A stretch of DNA of 64,000 nucleotides from a virus: positions 1 through 64,000 of the IMG/VR virus record IMGVR_UViG_3300005663_000044, one strand, 5' to 3'. Positions 53,279 to 63,095 of the stretch are shown piece by piece; position 1 is the first letter of the stretch, and the number at the start of each line of letters is the position of its first letter. The notes beneath the pieces were generated by a model. It was not told the DNA's origin. It worked only from the letters and a program-made list of their open reading frames with translations, and ran no database searches. Position numbers and translations under genes: made by a program.

Positions 53279-54541
53279 TTACTGTCGGGATTGTTTCACG
53301 TCCCACACCTCTCCCGGTGTGGGAAGATTTATATCCGCGTAGAGGGGACGGAAGGCAGTGGCGCCGTGCTTCCGATGGAACTCTACGAGCCACTGCTGTG
53401 GCCGGCGGAGTGTCTTATACCTGGACTGGACAAAGCGACTGGTCGCTGGTAGGGAACCATTGCCAATCACATGACCTCGCTGCCCGAGAGGGAGGTGATA
53501 GGGGGTATGCTGGTGGCCGAACCACACAATATCTACACCACCCAGCATAGACTCGTACTGTCTCGCTGCGTTGATGATGGGATAGAAGGGAATACCCCCA
53601 TAACTCCCACCACTTGTTCGGATGCTGGCACCATGTTCAAAGACGTGGCGCAGTCCACCAAACTCGCGCGTACCAAACCAAGTCTCCCAGTTGGTAACCT
53701 GAACCCGAGGCTCGTCTTCGAACGACCGCTGCAACATAGCTCCAATAAGCCAGGCGAATGTATCACAAAAGTCGCTCTCGCCCAGGCCAGCATTACCCGG
53801 CTTCTGGGTAGTGCGGTCATGGTTACCCCCCACTACATCAACCACAAGCTCTTCTAAGCCCGGGAGCTGCAGCAGAGAGCGCAGGAAGTAGGCCAGTAAG
53901 TCAAACCCCTCAACTGTCTGCTTCACCACCGGTATCTGGATTTCCCTAAGCTGGGCCGGCCGCATGGAATCTCCCTCTACAATGTCTCCCAGGATGGGCA
54001 CCCAGAGGCGTTTCACATGCTTACCCTTGGACTCATAGAAGATACCAGACAATGCTTCAAGTAGCTTGTCTACCTGGGCCCGGGTGACTTCGAGGTTCTG
54101 TTCGTATATTCCACCGGTATGCTCCAGGTCTGTCTTCTGCCCTATGTGCCAGTCACTAAGCTGAACAGCCCAGTCGACAGTGGTTTGAGCATCGTGCTCC
54201 GGGAAGGGACGAACGATACTTGGTTCGAAGGGACGCAACACTGATTGGATAGCTGCCACATACTCCTGACGCTTTGCGGCGCCGCGGGTGAGCTCCTGTA
54301 GAGTACGAGTCATCTCATTCTGGTGGAGACGCTCCTTCTCTTTCTCAATGCGCTGGTCAAGAGTACGAGGCTCCTGGTCTCGCCCGTTACTTTCGCCCTT
54401 CTTGTAGCGACTACGCGCGACCCGGTTTTTACACACAGGGCTGCAGTATTTAGCACCATTCTTCCGTCGCTCGGCCGGAACAAATAAGTCACAGCCGTGT
54501 CGGGCACATAATACATGAACCATATCTGAAGGTGGGGTCAT
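53279..54541 (-). CDS. Zinc-finger plus SbcD-like metallophosphoesterase
   Basis: 420 aa from ATG 54541 (AAAGGAA upstream). Residues 5-45 are a C-x4-C ... C-x3-C finger (LCARHGC, YCSPVCKN). The phosphoesterase motifs follow: SDWHIGQ (about 127), LGDIVEGD (about 180), GGNHDR (about 238), EHGAS (about 312), GHQHTP (about 340). Family: Mre11/SbcD nucleases, which pair with SbcC/Rad50 ATPases; such an ATPase fragment is at 63,092. The fused finger is unusual and may direct it to DNA. Confidence 0.8.
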   Translation of the reverse strand: MTPPSDMVHVLCARHGCDLFVPAERRKNGAKYCSPVCKNRVARSRYKKGESNGRDQEPRTLDQRIEKEKERLHQNEMTRTLQELTRGAAKRQEYVAAIQSVLRPFEPSIVRPFPEHDAQTTVDWAVQLSDWHIGQKTDLEHTGGIYEQNLEVTRAQVDKLLEALSGIFYESKGKHVKRLWVPILGDIVEGDSMRPAQLREIQIPVVKQTVEGFDLLAYFLRSLLQLPGLEELVVDVVGGNHDRTTQKPGNAGLGESDFCDTFAWLIGAMLQRSFEDEPRVQVTNWETWFGTREFGGLRHVFEHGASIRTSGGSYGGIPFYPIINAARQYESMLGGVDIVWFGHQHTPYHLPLGQRGHVIGNGSLPATSRFVQSRYKTLRRPQQWLVEFHRKHGATAFRPLYADINLPTPGEVWDVKQSRQ

Positions 54542-54542
54542 A

Positions 54543-54983
54543 TCAGTTCCTTTCATTGTATCGGGGATCGTTGGGTAAAAGCAAGGGAGATTTTTCTCCC
54601 TTATTTGGAACGACTAGGCCGCTCTCTGTCTTTTGATCGCCTACTAAGGCTTCGTATCGAGGTACCAAATGTATCTCAATAGCTTGAGGGTCGTCGGGCG
54701 CCGGCCGTATGTCCAAACCGAGACCCTGTGCAATAGCGGCAATGAGAGTTCGGCGTATATTAGAAGGGAGAGCGTTAAGAGCATCCGCCCAATACCCCAC
54801 CATCAAACGTTGGTTACTATGTGTTAATGCCACCAGCATATCCCGCATAGTGTACGCCCACGCTTCGAATTCTGTCTTACCTTTGACTTGAAAGGTCTTA
54901 TCTGTATGGGGGTGCCAGGAAGTGGCGGGAACGTGCATACTTACCCGGAAGGTCGGTTGGCGCTGTTCACACTTTTTAGTCAT
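54543..54983 (-). CDS. Hypothetical protein, 146 aa
   Basis: Begins MTKKCEQRQPTFRVSM; contains EFEAWAYTMRDMLVALTHS and a helical centre. Overlaps the end of the preceding 58-aa gene by 8 nt. Not recognised. Confidence 0.55.
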   Translation of the reverse strand: MTKKCEQRQPTFRVSMHVPATSWHPHTDKTFQVKGKTEFEAWAYTMRDMLVALTHSNQRLMVGYWADALNALPSNIRRTLIAAIAQGLGLDIRPAPDDPQAIEIHLVPRYEALVGDQKTESGLVVPNKGEKSPLLLPNDPRYNERN

Positions 54984-56167: not shown

Positions 56168-56310
56168 TCAGATTCCTCTGGGTAATCATGAGTGTCTACA
56201 TCGTGTGCACCCCAACACTCGACAGTACAGAAAGAAAGGCCACAGCTACATCTAATAGGTGATTTCAATATTATGAGTTTACATCTGCCACAGTAGTCTT
56301 TTAAATTCAT
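56164..56310 (-). CDS. MYND/HIT-like zinc finger, 48 aa
   Basis: ATG 56310 overlaps the stop of the polymerase-like gene (ATGA). CGRC, CSC, CTVEC and a terminal His-Asp-Val-Asp-Thr-His pattern give a cross-brace typical of MYND or zf-HIT fingers, which bind proteins. Confidence 0.6.
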   Translation of the reverse strand: MNLKDYCGRCKLIILKSPIRCSCGLSFCTVECWGAHDVDTHDYPEESE

Positions 56311-57986
56311 TCGACAGCTACTTTCGGTTCCAGTGAAATATCTCCTAAAGGATTGTTCAATCCGCCTATTTGCTCCAATTGCTGTTGCCATTTCATAGGC
56401 TCTTCTTTAGTGTAACCCATCACTGTAGCACGTAGCCAGTGGTTATAACGTGTGTTCTTCTCTGGTACTAACCAGTGTTGTTCAGAACCCATGTTGATAA
56501 TTGAAGCCACAGCTACATCTAATAGGTCATTGACCGAACCCATAATTGAGAAGTGGAGGAGCTCTGCAGGCCGCAAGCCCCAAGGGGACTGGCGCCCGTA
56601 CAATGTTGTCGTCTTTCGTGTTGAAACAGATTGATCAGTCAAACGGAGGAGACCGAGGCGGAAGTTAGGAAGAGTCTTGTCTACCCGGGAGGCTTTTATT
56701 AGTTGGGGAGTCTCAGGCATGTTAGCAGCCCAGTCCGGGTAGTACCGGCTGACTAGCTCCTCCTCCTCGCCACAGACCATCCATAAGAGGAAGGTTACTG
56801 CTTCCTTAGAGTCCAATTCAACTGCCTGACTGAACATCTCTAACGGATTTTGTCCATCCTGGAACCATCGCTTGAAGGTAGGATCGTGAGTGTAGTAAGC
56901 GAGCACCCGGAATAGGAGCCAGTCGTAGGTCAATGTCCAGCGAGACAGGCCCTCTGAGGGAGGCCCCTCTTCTAGATCAAACCTAAGTCGTTTGGCGTTG
57001 TGTTGTATTAAAGGTAGACCCACCTGCTGATAAAAACGAGGTGCTTCGAGAGCCATCGCCGGCCCGACAACAGCACAGTCGAGAGCATCCTTGAGGGGGG
57101 TGATATCACGGGCGATGGGACGACCGGTTGTGTACTCTAAGGCCAACATATCGTGTTTGACACTGGAGAGGAGTGCATCCCTGTCGTAGGTGCCCAGCCA
57201 TTGTTGTAGGATCATCACCAAAGCTCCTGTATCCCGGGTGACTAAGGCCGGCGCTCCCCGTTCAGTAGTGAGTAGCTTCTTCATTACATCACGAGCGTAG
57301 CTAAACGGTGTATTGACTCCACTATGATTGATACGGAGTAACCACCCCTGAGAATTCGTGGCAAAAGCCAGCTCCTCACTATTCGCAGCTATCCCAACAG
57401 GAGTCTTCTCTTCCTCGGCGCCTAGCTTTTGAAGCCATTCAGCCAGCGCAATGAGATCGTCTGGAGTCTGGACTAGTCGGTAGGGCCAGTCCCCTAATCT
57501 CTGCTCCGCCGGCTCCGAAAAAACCTCTGTAGAGGACTTCTGTTGCTTCAGGGAGTGTTTCCGATTCGCGTCCCGGCCACAGGTTCTACAGTGCCTCTTC
57601 CCATCGGGGCGTATATACGTATTACCTTTATCAAAGAGATGACCGTGAATGCAGGATTCCTGTCGTGCTTGTTGCGCTGGAGGAGCCTCCCCACGGAGCA
57701 CATTCTCTTGGTGAGTAACCGCTTCCATGTGAGTCACCTCCACGCATAACCTATTGCGACAGAGGTGGTCGAGTTCCAGTCCTTCTGGAACAGGGCCTTT
57801 TCCTTGTTCGTAGGCCCAGCGGTGGGCCTCAATTGTCTTCCCTTGGTGCCCCCCTAGACTGATACTACCGTAACCTTGTGTAGTTTTCGCTCCTGTCCAA
57901 ATTAGACAGCCATCCTCATTGGCAGCAGCCACCTTCGGCCAGAAACGTTCTTCAATTGGACGGCGACGAGGGCCTCGTTTACTCAT
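56307..57986 (-). CDS. HNH domain fused to degenerate family A polymerase-like protein
   Basis: 559 aa from ATG 57986. Residues 15-145: an HNH/AP2-type homing domain (CLIWTGAKTTQGYGSI, LELDHLCRNRLCVEVTHMEA, CIHGHLF ... CRTCG). The remainder follows the order of a DNA polymerase I: exonuclease-like part (190-300, no DTE motif), then TYDWLLFRVLAYYTHD (motif A position; usually DYSxxELRVLA, catalytic Asp and Glu absent), DGQNPLEMFSQAVELDS, TTTLYGRQ, and HFSIMGSVNDLLDVAVASI (like NxPIQGSAADLxKLA). No motif C HDE. A dead polymerase-like partner or a captured fragment. Confidence 0.6.
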   Translation of the reverse strand: MSKRGPRRRPIEERFWPKVAAANEDGCLIWTGAKTTQGYGSISLGGHQGKTIEAHRWAYEQGKGPVPEGLELDHLCRNRLCVEVTHMEAVTHQENVLRGEAPPAQQARQESCIHGHLFDKGNTYIRPDGKRHCRTCGRDANRKHSLKQQKSSTEVFSEPAEQRLGDWPYRLVQTPDDLIALAEWLQKLGAEEEKTPVGIAANSEELAFATNSQGWLLRINHSGVNTPFSYARDVMKKLLTTERGAPALVTRDTGALVMILQQWLGTYDRDALLSSVKHDMLALEYTTGRPIARDITPLKDALDCAVVGPAMALEAPRFYQQVGLPLIQHNAKRLRFDLEEGPPSEGLSRWTLTYDWLLFRVLAYYTHDPTFKRWFQDGQNPLEMFSQAVELDSKEAVTFLLWMVCGEEEELVSRYYPDWAANMPETPQLIKASRVDKTLPNFRLGLLRLTDQSVSTRKTTTLYGRQSPWGLRPAELLHFSIMGSVNDLLDVAVASIINMGSEQHWLVPEKNTRYNHWLRATVMGYTKEEPMKWQQQLEQIGGLNNPLGDISLEPKVAVE

Positions 57987-58260
57987 TGTTTCGCGGTCTC
58001 CCTGCCTGCTGCGTCGGCCTAAAAGTCTCATACATTTCGATCCACTGTTTCCTCTGTTTGGGGGACACTAGAGCCTCCCCGCCCTCCTCCTCCAGTTGGT
58101 CGTTCAGAGCTATCATGTTCATTAACAGGATCAGGAACCGCTGCAGTTTCCACTGGAGGCTGTGATTCTGATAATTGTTTCGGGCCCAGTTTAGGCGTGT
58201 GCTTGCGGTGGGCCACTTTCTTGGAGGATTGTCGCTTTCTTCGTTTTCCCATGATTCCAT
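57979..58260 (-). CDS. Hypothetical protein, 93 aa
   Basis: ATG 58260 behind GGGGGAG. Basic/aromatic helices (LQWKLQRFLILLMNMIAL, KQRKQWIEMYETF). Stop overlaps the next start. Another frame over the same bases looks low-complexity and was set aside. Confidence 0.55.
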   Translation of the reverse strand: MESWENEESDNPPRKWPTASTRLNWARNNYQNHSLQWKLQRFLILLMNMIALNDQLEEEGGEALVSPKQRKQWIEMYETFRPTQQAGRPRNNE

Positions 58261-59754: not shown

Positions 59755-59784
59755 ATTTTATTCTGCACCTTCCTGGAGTGTCAA
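59755..59784 (-). promoter_or_regulatory. Leftward promoter at the end of the polymerase gene
   Basis: Minus-strand TTGACA (59,779-59,784), 18 nt, TAAAAT (59,755-59,760). The polymerase stop codon lies inside the -10. Drives genes from 59,742 leftward. Confidence 0.75.
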
Positions 59785-62418
59785 GTCCCCAAATGAGCGA
59801 CCCATCTGCACATCAACAGGGATATCCCAGTCAAGTCGCTTGCCTGAGGGAAGGATCGTATCATGTGCCACCCGCACCCAGAGCTCTTTAACTGCGGCGC
59901 CGGCCTCTTCTAAGCGGTCGAGAGGCGCTTCCATCAAGAGGGAGTCGTGCATCTCCAAGACTGGGAAGACAAAGGAGGACAACTCGCGCTCTGTAGCAAT
60001 ATGAGCTAGAGAATGGAGGTCATGAGCGCCCCCCTGTACAGGAAGGTTGTACCCCTGACGGATGGCGCTCTCTAAGTCCCCCTTATAGCGTAGAGCGGCT
60101 AGGGCAGGTATCTCTGCGAAGTGCCGGCCCCGGCCGAAGATATCACGGACGACCCCGTACTTAAACAGCTCTTCTCGTATGCGTATAAAGTAGGCGCCCA
60201 TCGAAGGGAAGATATACTGCGTATAGTGCGACAGTAGTGGGGCTGCTTCTTCCTTACTACAGCCAAGACGTTGCCCTGCCCCCTCTTCGGTCAACCCATA
60301 GTTCATCCCAAAGACGAAGACCTTACCCCTACTACGGATAGAAGGATACTTCTCGTTCCAGTCAGCAAGTGACAGCTCTTCATCAACGCTATCCTTAGGA
60401 AAGCGGGAGGAGATACCTAACTTACAGAGCTCCCGGGCAACATAGGCGTGAATGTCCTGACCCGAGCGCAACAATCCGAGTAGTTGCTCGTCCCCCGTCT
60501 CATAAGCCATGACCCAGACCTCGGCCTGACTCCAGTCAGCGTTAAGCACACCATAACCAGGGGGGGCAATGAACATCGAGCGGATCGCATCCTCAGAGTG
60601 AATATTGTATTCATCCGAGTCAATCTTTACTTCCTTCGGCGGGTTCATTAGGTTGGGATTCTCACAGGAGAAACGGCCTGTGGAGGCCCGGGCTGCATTC
60701 CAGCGAGCATGGATACGCCCATCGGTACGGATATGCGAACGGAATCCACCACCGGCACCTCCTTCTAAGTAGGTACCATAAAACTTCTCGATGTGGCGGA
60801 TGTCAATGAGAAGAGGGAGAACAGGATGGTCTACTCGCTCATTCAATTCACTCAGCGCGTCGGCAGATGTCGACGCATGATTAGGGGAACAGGGTGTATC
60901 TCTCTTACAGTTTTTACATTCTTTCAAGGCCCCCTTTGTAACCCAGTTGGTCAATGGTAGATCGAGTTCTTTGAAGACCAGATTCTGCACGTTCTGGTAG
61001 TAGGTAGGACTCTCTATGCGGCGTCCCATTGTCTCATCTAGTGTCTCCTTCGACACTTGAAGACGATTTTTATAATATCGACAGAGGTTATCAAAGTATT
61101 CCTGGTCAATGTAGACGCCACGCTCTTCTAACTTCGTAGCGCAGCGAATGAGGGGAATGCTAATGTTTTTGTATAGCCAATCCGAACCTTCCTCCTGTAC
61201 CTTAGGGTAGAGGGTAGGAACTAGAGTCTTCACAACGTCCACGTCGGCGCCGCCGTACTCCCATAATTTCTCGTCTTCGACTTCCCACATCCGGGACTTC
61301 ATGTGAGCAAGTTCAGCCTCATAATATGGTATATCCGTCCAGTAAGCAGTCAGTACAGTCAGGTTGGCCGGGCTAACTTCCGATAGTAGGGACGAGAGCA
61401 AGCGCGTGTCGTGGGCGACATTGTTGACCTGGAAACCAAAAGCAGTCTGAGCTGTTACAGCCTCTTCATCCGGCCGGCGCTCCAACATCCTCAAATCAAA
61501 TCCTATATTCTGCCCTGACTTTGGCTTGTCAGAACGGAGTATTTCATCAAGGATGCTGATAGCTTCGGGCATCTCGGTGTCTAAATCCCAGTAGGGGACT
61601 GGGTACCACTCCTGCTCAGGAACGTCCTTGCGGGTCTTCCCCCGTCCCTTCATCTTCGTAACAGTATGCTCGCCACGATGGAGGATAGGTACACTAAAGC
61701 CAGTTCCTTCTTCACCTGAGAAGCTGACACAAAGTAGTTCGTCGTCAAGCCAGGAGAGACCACAAGTTTCCGTGTCGACCGAAATTTCATCTACAGTCGG
61801 GCCCAGCAGATAGTCTCGGAGTGCCCGAAGATCGGCCAAAGTCGTAATCCCTACATAGGAACCTAGCTTCTCCTCAATGCCCCCAGCGTCAGCTATTCGT
61901 TTAGCCTTGCGGAAGTGTGCGAGGACAAGAGCCACTTCATCCCAGTGCTTTCTCATTATGTAGCTAGGGTGGTAGGTAGGGATAATAGGTATGCCTGGGA
62001 GTTCTTCATTGTAGAGCGTGAACCCCATGACAGAGCCCACCGTCACCCCACGACGATAGAGCGAGCGGATAGCAGCGCCCCCCAGTGCGACAATTACTGT
62101 TGGATTCAGCTCCTTCAACTCTTCGATGAGGTAGTCATGACAATTGTCTACCTCAGCCCCAGTAGGGTTACGTCCCCCAAAACAACGGGTGGCATTAGTA
62201 TGAAAGACTTTGTACTGGTCGATCCCTGCCAACCATTCAATCACCTTTAGTACCCGGCCGGCTTTCCCTACGAAGGGGCGCCGCTTTTTGTCCTCCCACT
62301 GGCCTGGCCCCTCGCCCACGAAAGCGATTTTCGCGTTGTTAATGCCAGCACCGTTGACGACGCAGTTGCGCCCTTTTACCAGGGCGGGGCAGCGAGTACA
62401 GTCTTTGTTAGATAGCAA
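59758..62418 (-). CDS. Uracil-DNA glycosylase (family 4) fused to DNA polymerase I
   Basis: 886 aa from TTG 62418 (AGGTGG upstream). Residues 1-175: UDG with four likely iron-sulfur cysteines (CTRC, about 79 and 93), GEGPG ... RPFVGKAG and TYHPSY. Then 3'-5' exonuclease: SVDTETCGL (about 213), NIGFDLRML (304), YGGADVDV (388). Polymerase: motif A NADWSQAEVW (626-635), KVFVFGMNYG (699-708), motif C EMHDS (822-826). A CKNC ... C insertion near residue 501-510 interrupts the thumb. Replicates the phage genome; similar fusions occur in SPO1-type phages. Confidence 0.9.
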   Translation of the reverse strand: MLSNKDCTRCPALVKGRNCVVNGAGINNAKIAFVGEGPGQWEDKKRRPFVGKAGRVLKVIEWLAGIDQYKVFHTNATRCFGGRNPTGAEVDNCHDYLIEELKELNPTVIVALGGAAIRSLYRRGVTVGSVMGFTLYNEELPGIPIIPTYHPSYIMRKHWDEVALVLAHFRKAKRIADAGGIEEKLGSYVGITTLADLRALRDYLLGPTVDEISVDTETCGLSWLDDELLCVSFSGEEGTGFSVPILHRGEHTVTKMKGRGKTRKDVPEQEWYPVPYWDLDTEMPEAISILDEILRSDKPKSGQNIGFDLRMLERRPDEEAVTAQTAFGFQVNNVAHDTRLLSSLLSEVSPANLTVLTAYWTDIPYYEAELAHMKSRMWEVEDEKLWEYGGADVDVVKTLVPTLYPKVQEEGSDWLYKNISIPLIRCATKLEERGVYIDQEYFDNLCRYYKNRLQVSKETLDETMGRRIESPTYYQNVQNLVFKELDLPLTNWVTKGALKECKNCKRDTPCSPNHASTSADALSELNERVDHPVLPLLIDIRHIEKFYGTYLEGGAGGGFRSHIRTDGRIHARWNAARASTGRFSCENPNLMNPPKEVKIDSDEYNIHSEDAIRSMFIAPPGYGVLNADWSQAEVWVMAYETGDEQLLGLLRSGQDIHAYVARELCKLGISSRFPKDSVDEELSLADWNEKYPSIRSRGKVFVFGMNYGLTEEGAGQRLGCSKEEAAPLLSHYTQYIFPSMGAYFIRIREELFKYGVVRDIFGRGRHFAEIPALAALRYKGDLESAIRQGYNLPVQGGAHDLHSLAHIATERELSSFVFPVLEMHDSLLMEAPLDRLEEAGAAVKELWVRVAHDTILPSGKRLDWDIPVDVQMGRSFGDLTLQEGAE

Positions 62419-62622
62419 TTACCACCTCATACTGCCATCAAGGAATTCACGGGGCCAGAGGCAGGTGGATGCAAGGGCGCCAGCCTTAAACTCCGAACGA
62501 GTGAACTTCCGTTCATATAGGTGACGGTCTTTACGGTCAAAACCATCTGGGTCTAATATCTTAATACCGATTAGCTGCTCCCATTCTTCAATAGATCGTT
62601 TTCGTCTAAAAGGATTCTGCAT
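62419..62622 (-). CDS. Hypothetical protein, 67 aa
   Basis: Starts RRKRSIEEWEQLIGIK; basic N-terminus, ends GSMRW next to the polymerase TTG start (TAATTG). Unknown; resolvase is upstream. Confidence 0.55.
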   Translation of the reverse strand: MQNPFRRKRSIEEWEQLIGIKILDPDGFDRKDRHLYERKFTRSEFKAGALASTCLWPREFLDGSMRW

Positions 62623-63095
62623 CAGTCTTCTCCTCTCCTCCGCCGGCCGAGCCCGAACTCGGCAATACAGGCGGCGTCGTATACGTCCTGGGGTTGACCG
62701 GGCTCTAGCTCCAGTACCTGTTGGGCATAGGCTGTGATCTCCTCCTTAGAGGCGTGACCATTACCCAAAATCGCCTTCTTCCAGGTACCATTATTCACGA
62801 GTGAGTGAGGCATGTCATGATACCAGAGCCAGTACCGAATCATCCCAATGACCTGGGCCTGATAGCTGAGAGCCTTTGCATTCACCCCCATGACAGGGGA
62901 CTCTATGTATACCCAATCAAGATGTTCCCGGGGTGAACACTGAAACAGTTCCTTGTAGAGGCCCTCAATTCGGTCTTCTGCCAGGCGCCCCTTAGCTTCT
63001 AAACGAGTAATGATCGGGCTAATAGATTTGCTGTCACCGTCAAGGATGACACTCGTGATTGCCTTTGTGTCTGGGTCAATTCCCATTACTCTCAT
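62622..63095 (-). CDS. RuvC-like Holliday junction resolvase
   Basis: 157 aa. MGIDPDTKAITSVIL gives the first catalytic Asp in an RNase H-fold strand, VYIESPVMG the Glu, and QDVYDAACIA the pair near the C-terminus. Cleaves four-way junctions formed in replication and recombination. Its stop overlaps the next start. Confidence 0.8.
   Translation of the reverse strand: MRVMGIDPDTKAITSVILDGDSKSISPIITRLEAKGRLAEDRIEGLYKELFQCSPREHLDWVYIESPVMGVNAKALSYQAQVIGMIRYWLWYHDMPHSLVNNGTWKKAILGNGHASKEEITAYAQQVLELEPGQPQDVYDAACIAEFGLGRRRRGED

What the first reader, a model, noticed from the sequence alone, without database searches (positions are those of the whole stretch)
56307..57986. HNH domain fused to a catalytically dead polymerase A-like protein
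After the HNH domain the protein tracks the order of a DNA polymerase I, but motif A lacks the Asp and Glu, the exonuclease acids are absent and motif C is missing. A full polymerase with all motifs is encoded at 59,758. Either the phage keeps a non-catalytic polymerase partner, or a homing nuclease interrupted and ruined a duplicate.
Basis: partly seen in the sequence, partly recalled or inferred. Interest (0 to 1): 0.82.

Follow-up and report, generated by a model that had tools for sequence, protein, structure and literature searches.

The report
Catalytically dead phage DNA polymerase relative
A group of uncultured phages carries, just downstream of its working DNA polymerase, a second polymerase-like protein that has lost the residues needed for DNA synthesis yet is kept intact by selection, and in this one phage a mobile HNH nuclease has landed at its start and become fused to it.

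Summary
The ORF at 56,307-57,986 (-) is as described: an HNH_3 nuclease (residues 4-154) fused to about 405 residues that no family library recognises. Eight relatives of the C-terminal part (57-91% identical) were found in three viral metagenomes. All eight lack the HNH and all have the same dead catalytic motifs. The HNH is therefore a late insertion and did not ruin the polymerase. Two independent tests make the C-terminal part a family A polymerase derivative. A profile comparison with 23 PolAs scores 49.0 over 148 columns (150 shuffles, maximum 29.1; seven unrelated families, maximum 27.4). A structure model built without any polymerase in its alignment matches phage exonuclease/polymerases (E 1.7e-4) and has a confident DEDD-exonuclease-like domain. 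In all nine sequences the motif A Asp is Thr/Asn and its Glu is Leu/Ile, the O-helix Arg, Lys and Tyr are replaced, and ExoI and ExoII acids are gone. The motif C strand has Val/Ile at the probable Asp position, and the thumb is missing. dN/dS is about 0.10-0.16, and the gene order UDG-PolA...dead-pol is fixed in 9 of 9. Most likely it is a non-catalytic accessory protein of the phage replisome; that function is inferred. It differs from divPolA1/2, which keep their palm catalytic residues.

The parts
56307..57986 (-). HNH / dead-PolA fusion ORF, 559 aa (574 aa from the in-frame ATG at 58031)
57525..57977 (-). HNH nuclease domain (residues 4-154), an inserted homing-type endonuclease
   Evidence: PHROG 826 4.5e-55, Pfam HNH_3 3.2e-13; absent from all 8 relatives
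57030..57488 (-). vestigial 3'-5' (DEDD-type) exonuclease-like domain, core residues 13-165, ExoI and ExoII acids lost
   Evidence: AF2 pLDDT mostly 80-92 with a DEDD-exonuclease topology; Foldseek Exd1 prob 0.96; motif columns
56490..56948 (-). palm/fingers remnant of the PolA polymerase domain (core residues 193-345)
   Evidence: hhalign score 49.0 against 23 PolAs; controls maximum 29.1
56898..56939 (-). motif A remnant WTL[TN]YDWLLFRVLA: catalytic Asp to Thr/Asn, Glu to Leu/Ile
   Evidence: alignment
56766..56813 (-). motif B / O-helix remnant SKEAVTFLLWMVCG: Arg, Lys, Tyr replaced
56406..56441 (-). probable motif C strand HWLRA(T)V(M)GYTK: Asp replaced by Val/Ile
   Evidence: placement by inference from spacing
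57979..58260 (-). upstream gene (93 aa; 95-99 aa in most relatives) whose 3' end received the HNH insertion; its stop overlaps the HNH start (ATGAGTAA)
58028..58252 (-). remnant of the dead-pol reading frame upstream of the insertion, now closed by TGA with an overlapping ATG (ATGA)
59758..62418 (-). active UDG-exonuclease-PolA, the presumed partner
   Evidence: Pfam DNA_pol_A 2.2e-52, UDG 1.5e-25, exo 1.7e-7

Best explanation
The C-terminal 405 residues belong to a family of catalytically dead derivatives of family A DNA polymerase, so far seen only in one lineage of uncultured tailed phages. The family keeps a degenerate exonuclease-like domain and a thumbless palm/fingers scaffold, and has lost both active sites. 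It is encoded in the replication module, always on the same strand downstream of an active UDG-PolA. Most likely it works as a non-catalytic accessory subunit that binds DNA and/or the active polymerase, as inactivated B-family polymerases are thought to do. In this phage only, a free-standing HNH homing endonuclease inserted at the overlapping junction with the upstream gene and is now translated as an N-terminal fusion. Shown here by computation: the homology, the loss of the motifs, purifying selection, fixed linkage and the secondary HNH insertion. Inferred: lack of activity, binding to the polymerase, and the accessory role.
For: Homology: hhalign of 9 members against 23 PolAs gives score 49.0 over 148 colinear columns; 150 shuffles reach at most 29.1 and seven unrelated neighbour families at most 27.4. 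Published divPolA2 scores 44.7 in the same test. Fold: the AF2 model from dead-pol sequences only matches a phage 'Bifunctional 3'-5' exonuclease/DNA polymerase' (E 1.7e-4) and other phage polymerases, and Exd1, Aquifex Pol I and Pol theta in PDB. Dead motifs in 9 of 9. Selection: dN/dS 0.10-0.16 where it could be estimated. Linkage: every dead-pol genome has the active PolA (for window and L003-L009; L002), and the gene order UDG-PolA, 193 aa, KTSC, 98 aa, dead-pol is the same in all nine. HNH absent in 8 of 8 relatives; no RNA family, so no known intron, at the junction.
Against: No direct evidence of an interaction or a role. The palm half of the model is low-confidence (pLDDT about 30-60), and the PDB matches have E above 0.001 with low TM scores. 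The exonuclease-half match is weak by sequence alone (21-24, about the level of shuffles). The family is small (9 sequences, 3 metagenomes) and absent from cultured phages and cellular genomes at the sensitivity used. An invariant Asp two residues after the motif A position, and one at the ExoIII position, leave a small chance of residual metal binding.
Confidence: 0.6

Rival explanations
1. The dead polymerase was exapted for a job outside replication, for example as a decoy or inhibitor of a host polymerase or defence protein, or as a structural or regulatory protein, as with poxvirus F12.
For: All recognisable catalytic residues of the polymerase site are gone and the thumb is missing; an inactivated viral polymerase implicated in virion morphogenesis exists (F12, PMC4304020, title and abstract). 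No cellular relative was found.
Against: Fixed position in the replication module next to the active polymerase in 9 of 9 genomes; genes for counter-defence or moron functions usually vary in presence and place (general knowledge).
Confidence: 0.25
2. It is a divergent but active polymerase or nuclease using shifted acidic residues (D201 of motif A, D149/D146 of LKDALDC).
For: Asp at motif A position +2 and the Asp residues of LKDALDC are invariant in all nine.
Against: No acid in the motif C strand, no O-helix Lys or Arg at the expected positions, no ExoI or ExoII acid in any member; no thumb.
Confidence: 0.08
3. A homing nuclease interrupted and ruined a duplicate of the neighbouring polymerase; the remainder is a decaying pseudogene.
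For: An HNH is indeed inserted in the window copy, and the original start region of the dead-pol frame now has a stop.
Against: Eight HNH-free relatives are equally dead and full length. dN/dS is 0.13 between the window and L002. It is no closer to the neighbouring polymerase than to distant PolAs.
Confidence: 0.04
4. The C-terminal part is not a polymerase relative at all and the resemblance is chance.
For: No family-library hit and no BLAST match to the active polymerase.
Against: The profile score far exceeds controls, and an independent fold search returns phage DNA polymerases and DEDD exonucleases near the top.
Confidence: 0.03

Closest known systems
divPolA1 and divPolA2 of Caudoviricetes (PMC11348598, 2024)
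   Same: A divergent second PolA beside a regular polymerase in phages; thumb truncated or absent; exonuclease inactivated or absent; similar size (422-441 aa).
   Different: Both keep the palm catalytic residues and are thought active; ours has lost motifs A, B and C. hhalign finds no direct similarity (21.5 and 14.5, noise level). Hosts and genomes are unrelated as far as known.
[quoted passage not shown]
   Different: Family B, cellular, widespread; ours is family A, phage, thumbless and restricted.
Non-catalytic C-terminal module of DNA Pol epsilon; ImuB (inactive Y family)
   Same: A dead polymerase module used in a replication or mutagenesis complex (PMC7308368 and PMC2669801 abstracts; PMC12926913).
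   Different: Other polymerase families; in Pol epsilon it is fused to the active module.
PolA2/APEX of Actinobacteria (PMC12926913)
   Same: Family A with a dead exonuclease domain.
   Different: Described as a working low-fidelity polymerase.
Free-standing phage HNH_3 homing endonucleases (PHROG 826 and relatives)
   Same: The N-terminal 150 residues are a typical member.
   Different: Fused in frame to a downstream gene instead of ending at its own stop; L003 has a free-standing relative of 152 aa (44% identical).

Membership tests
Family A DNA polymerase (by descent) | Sequence-profile similarity across motif A to beyond motif B | tested here: met
   hhalign 49.0 over 148 columns against control maximum 29.1
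Family A DNA polymerase (by descent) | PolA fold: DEDD exonuclease domain followed by palm/fingers | tested here: met
   Polymerase-free AF2 model; phage exonuclease/polymerase hit E 1.7e-4; PDB DEDD-exonuclease-like and Pol I hits, weaker; palm half low confidence
Family A DNA polymerase (active enzyme) | Motif A Asp and Glu, O-helix Arg/Lys/Tyr, motif C Asp | tested here: not met
   Replaced in 9 of 9; the motif C placement is inferred
Family A DNA polymerase (active enzyme) | Thumb subdomain | tested here: not met
   About 40 residues between the exonuclease-like domain and motif A, against about 220 in the active neighbour
DEDD proofreading exonuclease (active) | ExoI Asp/Glu, ExoII Asp, ExoIII Asp | tested here: not met
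   ExoI is IAA-like and ExoII has no conserved acid in 9 of 9; an Asp near ExoIII is retained
divPolA1 | Intact palm catalytic Asp residues and direct sequence similarity | tested here: not met
   No catalytic acids; hhalign 14.5 against one representative
divPolA2 | Active palm, unrelated N-terminal globular domain, direct sequence similarity | tested here: not met
   Dead palm; exonuclease-like N-terminal domain; hhalign 21.5 against five representatives
HNH_3 homing endonuclease | HNH_3 domain above the curated cut-off | tested here: met
   49.5 bits against a 24.8 cut-off
HNH_3 homing endonuclease | Presence/absence polymorphism at one site (empty allele) | tested here: met
   L002 (91% identical) has the empty junction; 8 of 8 relatives lack it
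HNH_3 homing endonuclease | Cleavage of the empty allele | not testable with these tools
   needs an assay
Group I intron or intein carrying an HNH | Intron RNA or splicing domains around the HNH | tested here: not met
   No Rfam match; the roughly 490-nt insert is nearly all HNH ORF; no Hint domain in Pfam

The most novel reading that the evidence does not exclude
This is the first conserved, fully inactivated family A polymerase in a virus: a thumbless pseudo-polymerase that forms an obligate heteromeric replicase with an active UDG-PolA in its phage lineage, a family A counterpart of the dead half of Pol epsilon.
Probability: 0.35. Interest if true: 0.78.

Novelty: new variant of a known kind. 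Interest (0 to 1): 0.6.

Why it matters
Dead polymerases used as scaffolds or adaptors are known in families B and Y, but in the library searched here I found no fully inactivated family A polymerase. The published divergent phage PolAs keep their palm catalytic residues. A conserved pseudo-PolA beside an active UDG-PolA would show that phage replicases can be multi-subunit in an unexpected way, and it is testable with two purified proteins. The HNH fusion shows how a homing nuclease can land on a gene overlap and take over translation of the downstream gene without destroying it.

Tried and rejected
BLASTP of the C-terminal part against the active polymerase gave nothing, and hhalign with four close sequences on each side gave nothing; both failed for lack of diversity. 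AF2 with four sequences failed (pLDDT 37); nine sequences gave a usable N-domain. An AF2 run with active polymerases mixed in was considered and dropped, because the MAFFT alignment misplaced motifs B and C and the result would have been circular. Scans for wider relatives with whole-length and C-terminal profiles returned only the same eight loci; cellular genomes gave none. A scan for UDG-PolA relatives in cellular genomes returned only matches to the UDG part, so the host stays unknown. Group I intron and intein were considered and rejected. Membership in divPolA1 and divPolA2 was tested and rejected.

Full report
Observation. The frame at 56,307-57,986 on the minus strand is a single ORF of 559 codons. 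Residues 4-154 are an HNH nuclease (Pfam HNH_3 3.2e-13, PHROG 826 4.5e-55). The rest, here numbered as a 405-residue core (window 57,524-56,310), has no match in Pfam, PHROGs or PDB sequences. In the phage collection tblastn gives only sub-significant matches, but six of seven of these are Gordonia phage DNA polymerase I genes.

Relatives. Profile scans of IMG/VR found eight further genes with 57-91% identity (L002-L009). They come from metagenomes 3300037247, 3300043220 and 3300005253. None has an HNH domain. Repeated scans with other patterns returned the same eight. Species-representative cellular genomes gave none.

Descent from family A polymerase. I aligned the nine members and compared them with 23 phage PolAs, from the relatives, other IMG/VR loci and cultured phages. 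The hhalign score is 49.0 (single-pair E 3.2e-5) over 148 columns running from motif A through motif B to the helix after the GR loop, 'ELLHFSIMGSVNDLLDV' against 'rqaiNspiQ...sDl'. Thirty shuffles or reversals reached at most 21.9, and 120 further shuffles at most 29.1. Seven unrelated families from the same genomes reached at most 27.4. The score is 40.8 when the phages' own polymerases are left out, and only 23.7 against those alone, so this is not a recent copy of the neighbour. As a yardstick, the published divPolA2 family scores 44.7 against the same PolA set.

Independent fold test. AlphaFold2 with the nine dead-pol sequences only, no polymerase in the alignment, gave core residues 13-165 mostly at pLDDT 80-92 and the rest at about 30-60. 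Foldseek against viral models ranks an unnamed 556-aa protein first (1.2e-4), then a 'Bifunctional 3'-5' exonuclease/DNA polymerase' (1.7e-4, probability 0.99), a DNA polymerase at rank 4 (2.8e-3) and a 'DNA polymerase A domain-containing protein' at rank 6 (0.033). Against PDB it ranks the exonuclease-domain protein Exd1 first (7e-3, probability 0.96), with Egalitarian, Aquifex Pol I (0.068), NrnC and Pol theta (0.17) next. The earlier, poorer model already ranked Rrp6 first.

State of the active sites (aligned through). Motif A reads WTL[TN]YDWL[LI]F[RK]VLA: the catalytic Asp is Thr/Asn and the Glu is Leu/Ile. The O-helix reads SKEAVAFLLWMVCG: Arg, Lys and Tyr are replaced. The probable motif C strand reads LRAxVxGY with Val/Ile for the Asp; its placement rests on spacing and on the C-terminal strand, and is inference. 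ExoI reads GIAA-like, and ExoII has no conserved acid. An invariant Asp in LKDALDC lies at the expected ExoIII place. The thumb is missing: about 40 residues stand where the active neighbour has about 220.

Selection and linkage. dN/dS is 0.13 (window-L002), 0.16 (L005-L006), 0.16 (L003-L005) and 0.10 (window-L003, with dS near saturation). The active polymerase gives 0.06, 0.11 and 0.135 for the first three pairs. All nine genomes have an active UDG-PolA, and the order UDG-PolA, 193-aa gene, KTSC gene, 98-aa gene, dead-pol is the same in all nine. Two further UDG-PolA contigs (L014, L018) have no dead-pol match, but both end within about 2.2 kb of the polymerase gene, before the place would be reached.

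The HNH insertion. Against L002 (91% identical) the junction carries about 490 extra nucleotides, almost all HNH ORF. The HNH ATG overlaps the stop of the upstream gene (ATGAGTAA), whose last nine residues are replaced. The dead-pol frame before the insertion now has a TGA at 58,028, overlapping an in-frame ATG. I see no ATG, GTG or TTG between the HNH and the core in that frame, so in this phage the protein is probably made only as a fusion. No Rfam family and no splicing domain is present. The HNH relative in L003 also begins at an ATG overlapping the stop of its upstream gene, so the two look alike in mode of insertion.

Mechanism. I consider most likely a non-catalytic accessory subunit of the phage replicase. 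The parts retained (exonuclease-like domain, palm/fingers scaffold) can bind DNA or protein, while the parts lost are those for catalysis and the thumb. It sits in the replication module, and dead paralogues in families B and Y work or are proposed to work in this way (PMC2527604, PMC7308368, PMC12926913). The interaction is not shown here. The main rival is exaptation for a non-replicative role.

Comparison with what is known. divPolA1 and divPolA2 (PMC11348598) are the closest published kind: divergent second PolAs in phages with truncated or missing thumb and no working exonuclease. They keep their palm catalytic residues, and direct profile comparison with our family is at noise level, so I do not file ours with them. 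Paper searches here found no fully inactivated family A polymerase; the library holds open-access papers only.

Noticed in passing
L002 5209-5460, L003 7758-8000, L004 7755-8000, L005-L008 equivalents: The dead-pol frame stays open, with an ATG 5-8 nt after the upstream gene's ATG where mapped, across the whole 98-aa upstream gene in seven of eight HNH-free relatives; possible dual-coding N-terminal extension (basic, MGKRKRK...). A conserved in-frame GTG/ATG with an SD-like sequence near the end is the alternative start.
   Followed up: partly
window 59758-62418: The active polymerase is a fusion of a uracil-DNA-glycosylase-like domain, 3'-5' exonuclease and PolA; its ten close relatives (67-89%) were found only in metagenomic viral contigs.
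   Followed up: partly
L003 1349-1807: A free-standing HNH of the same kind (44% identical) whose ATG overlaps the stop of an upstream metallophosphoesterase-like gene.
   Followed up: partly
window 53279-54556 and equivalents: The metallophosphoesterase at this place comes in two very different alleles (60-74% identity to the window in L008/L009, 23-24% in L003-L007) at the same locus, suggesting gene replacement.
   Followed up: no
L018 4340-6959: The UDG-PolA of this contig is split between two frames (648 and 300 aa open frames), a frameshift or sequencing error.
   Followed up: no
window 62622-63095; L003 3151-3495; L004 2658-3137: The gene just before UDG-PolA is RuvC-like in the window, but an unrelated-looking ORF, possibly another nuclease, in L003; possible displacement of one resolvase by another.
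   Followed up: no
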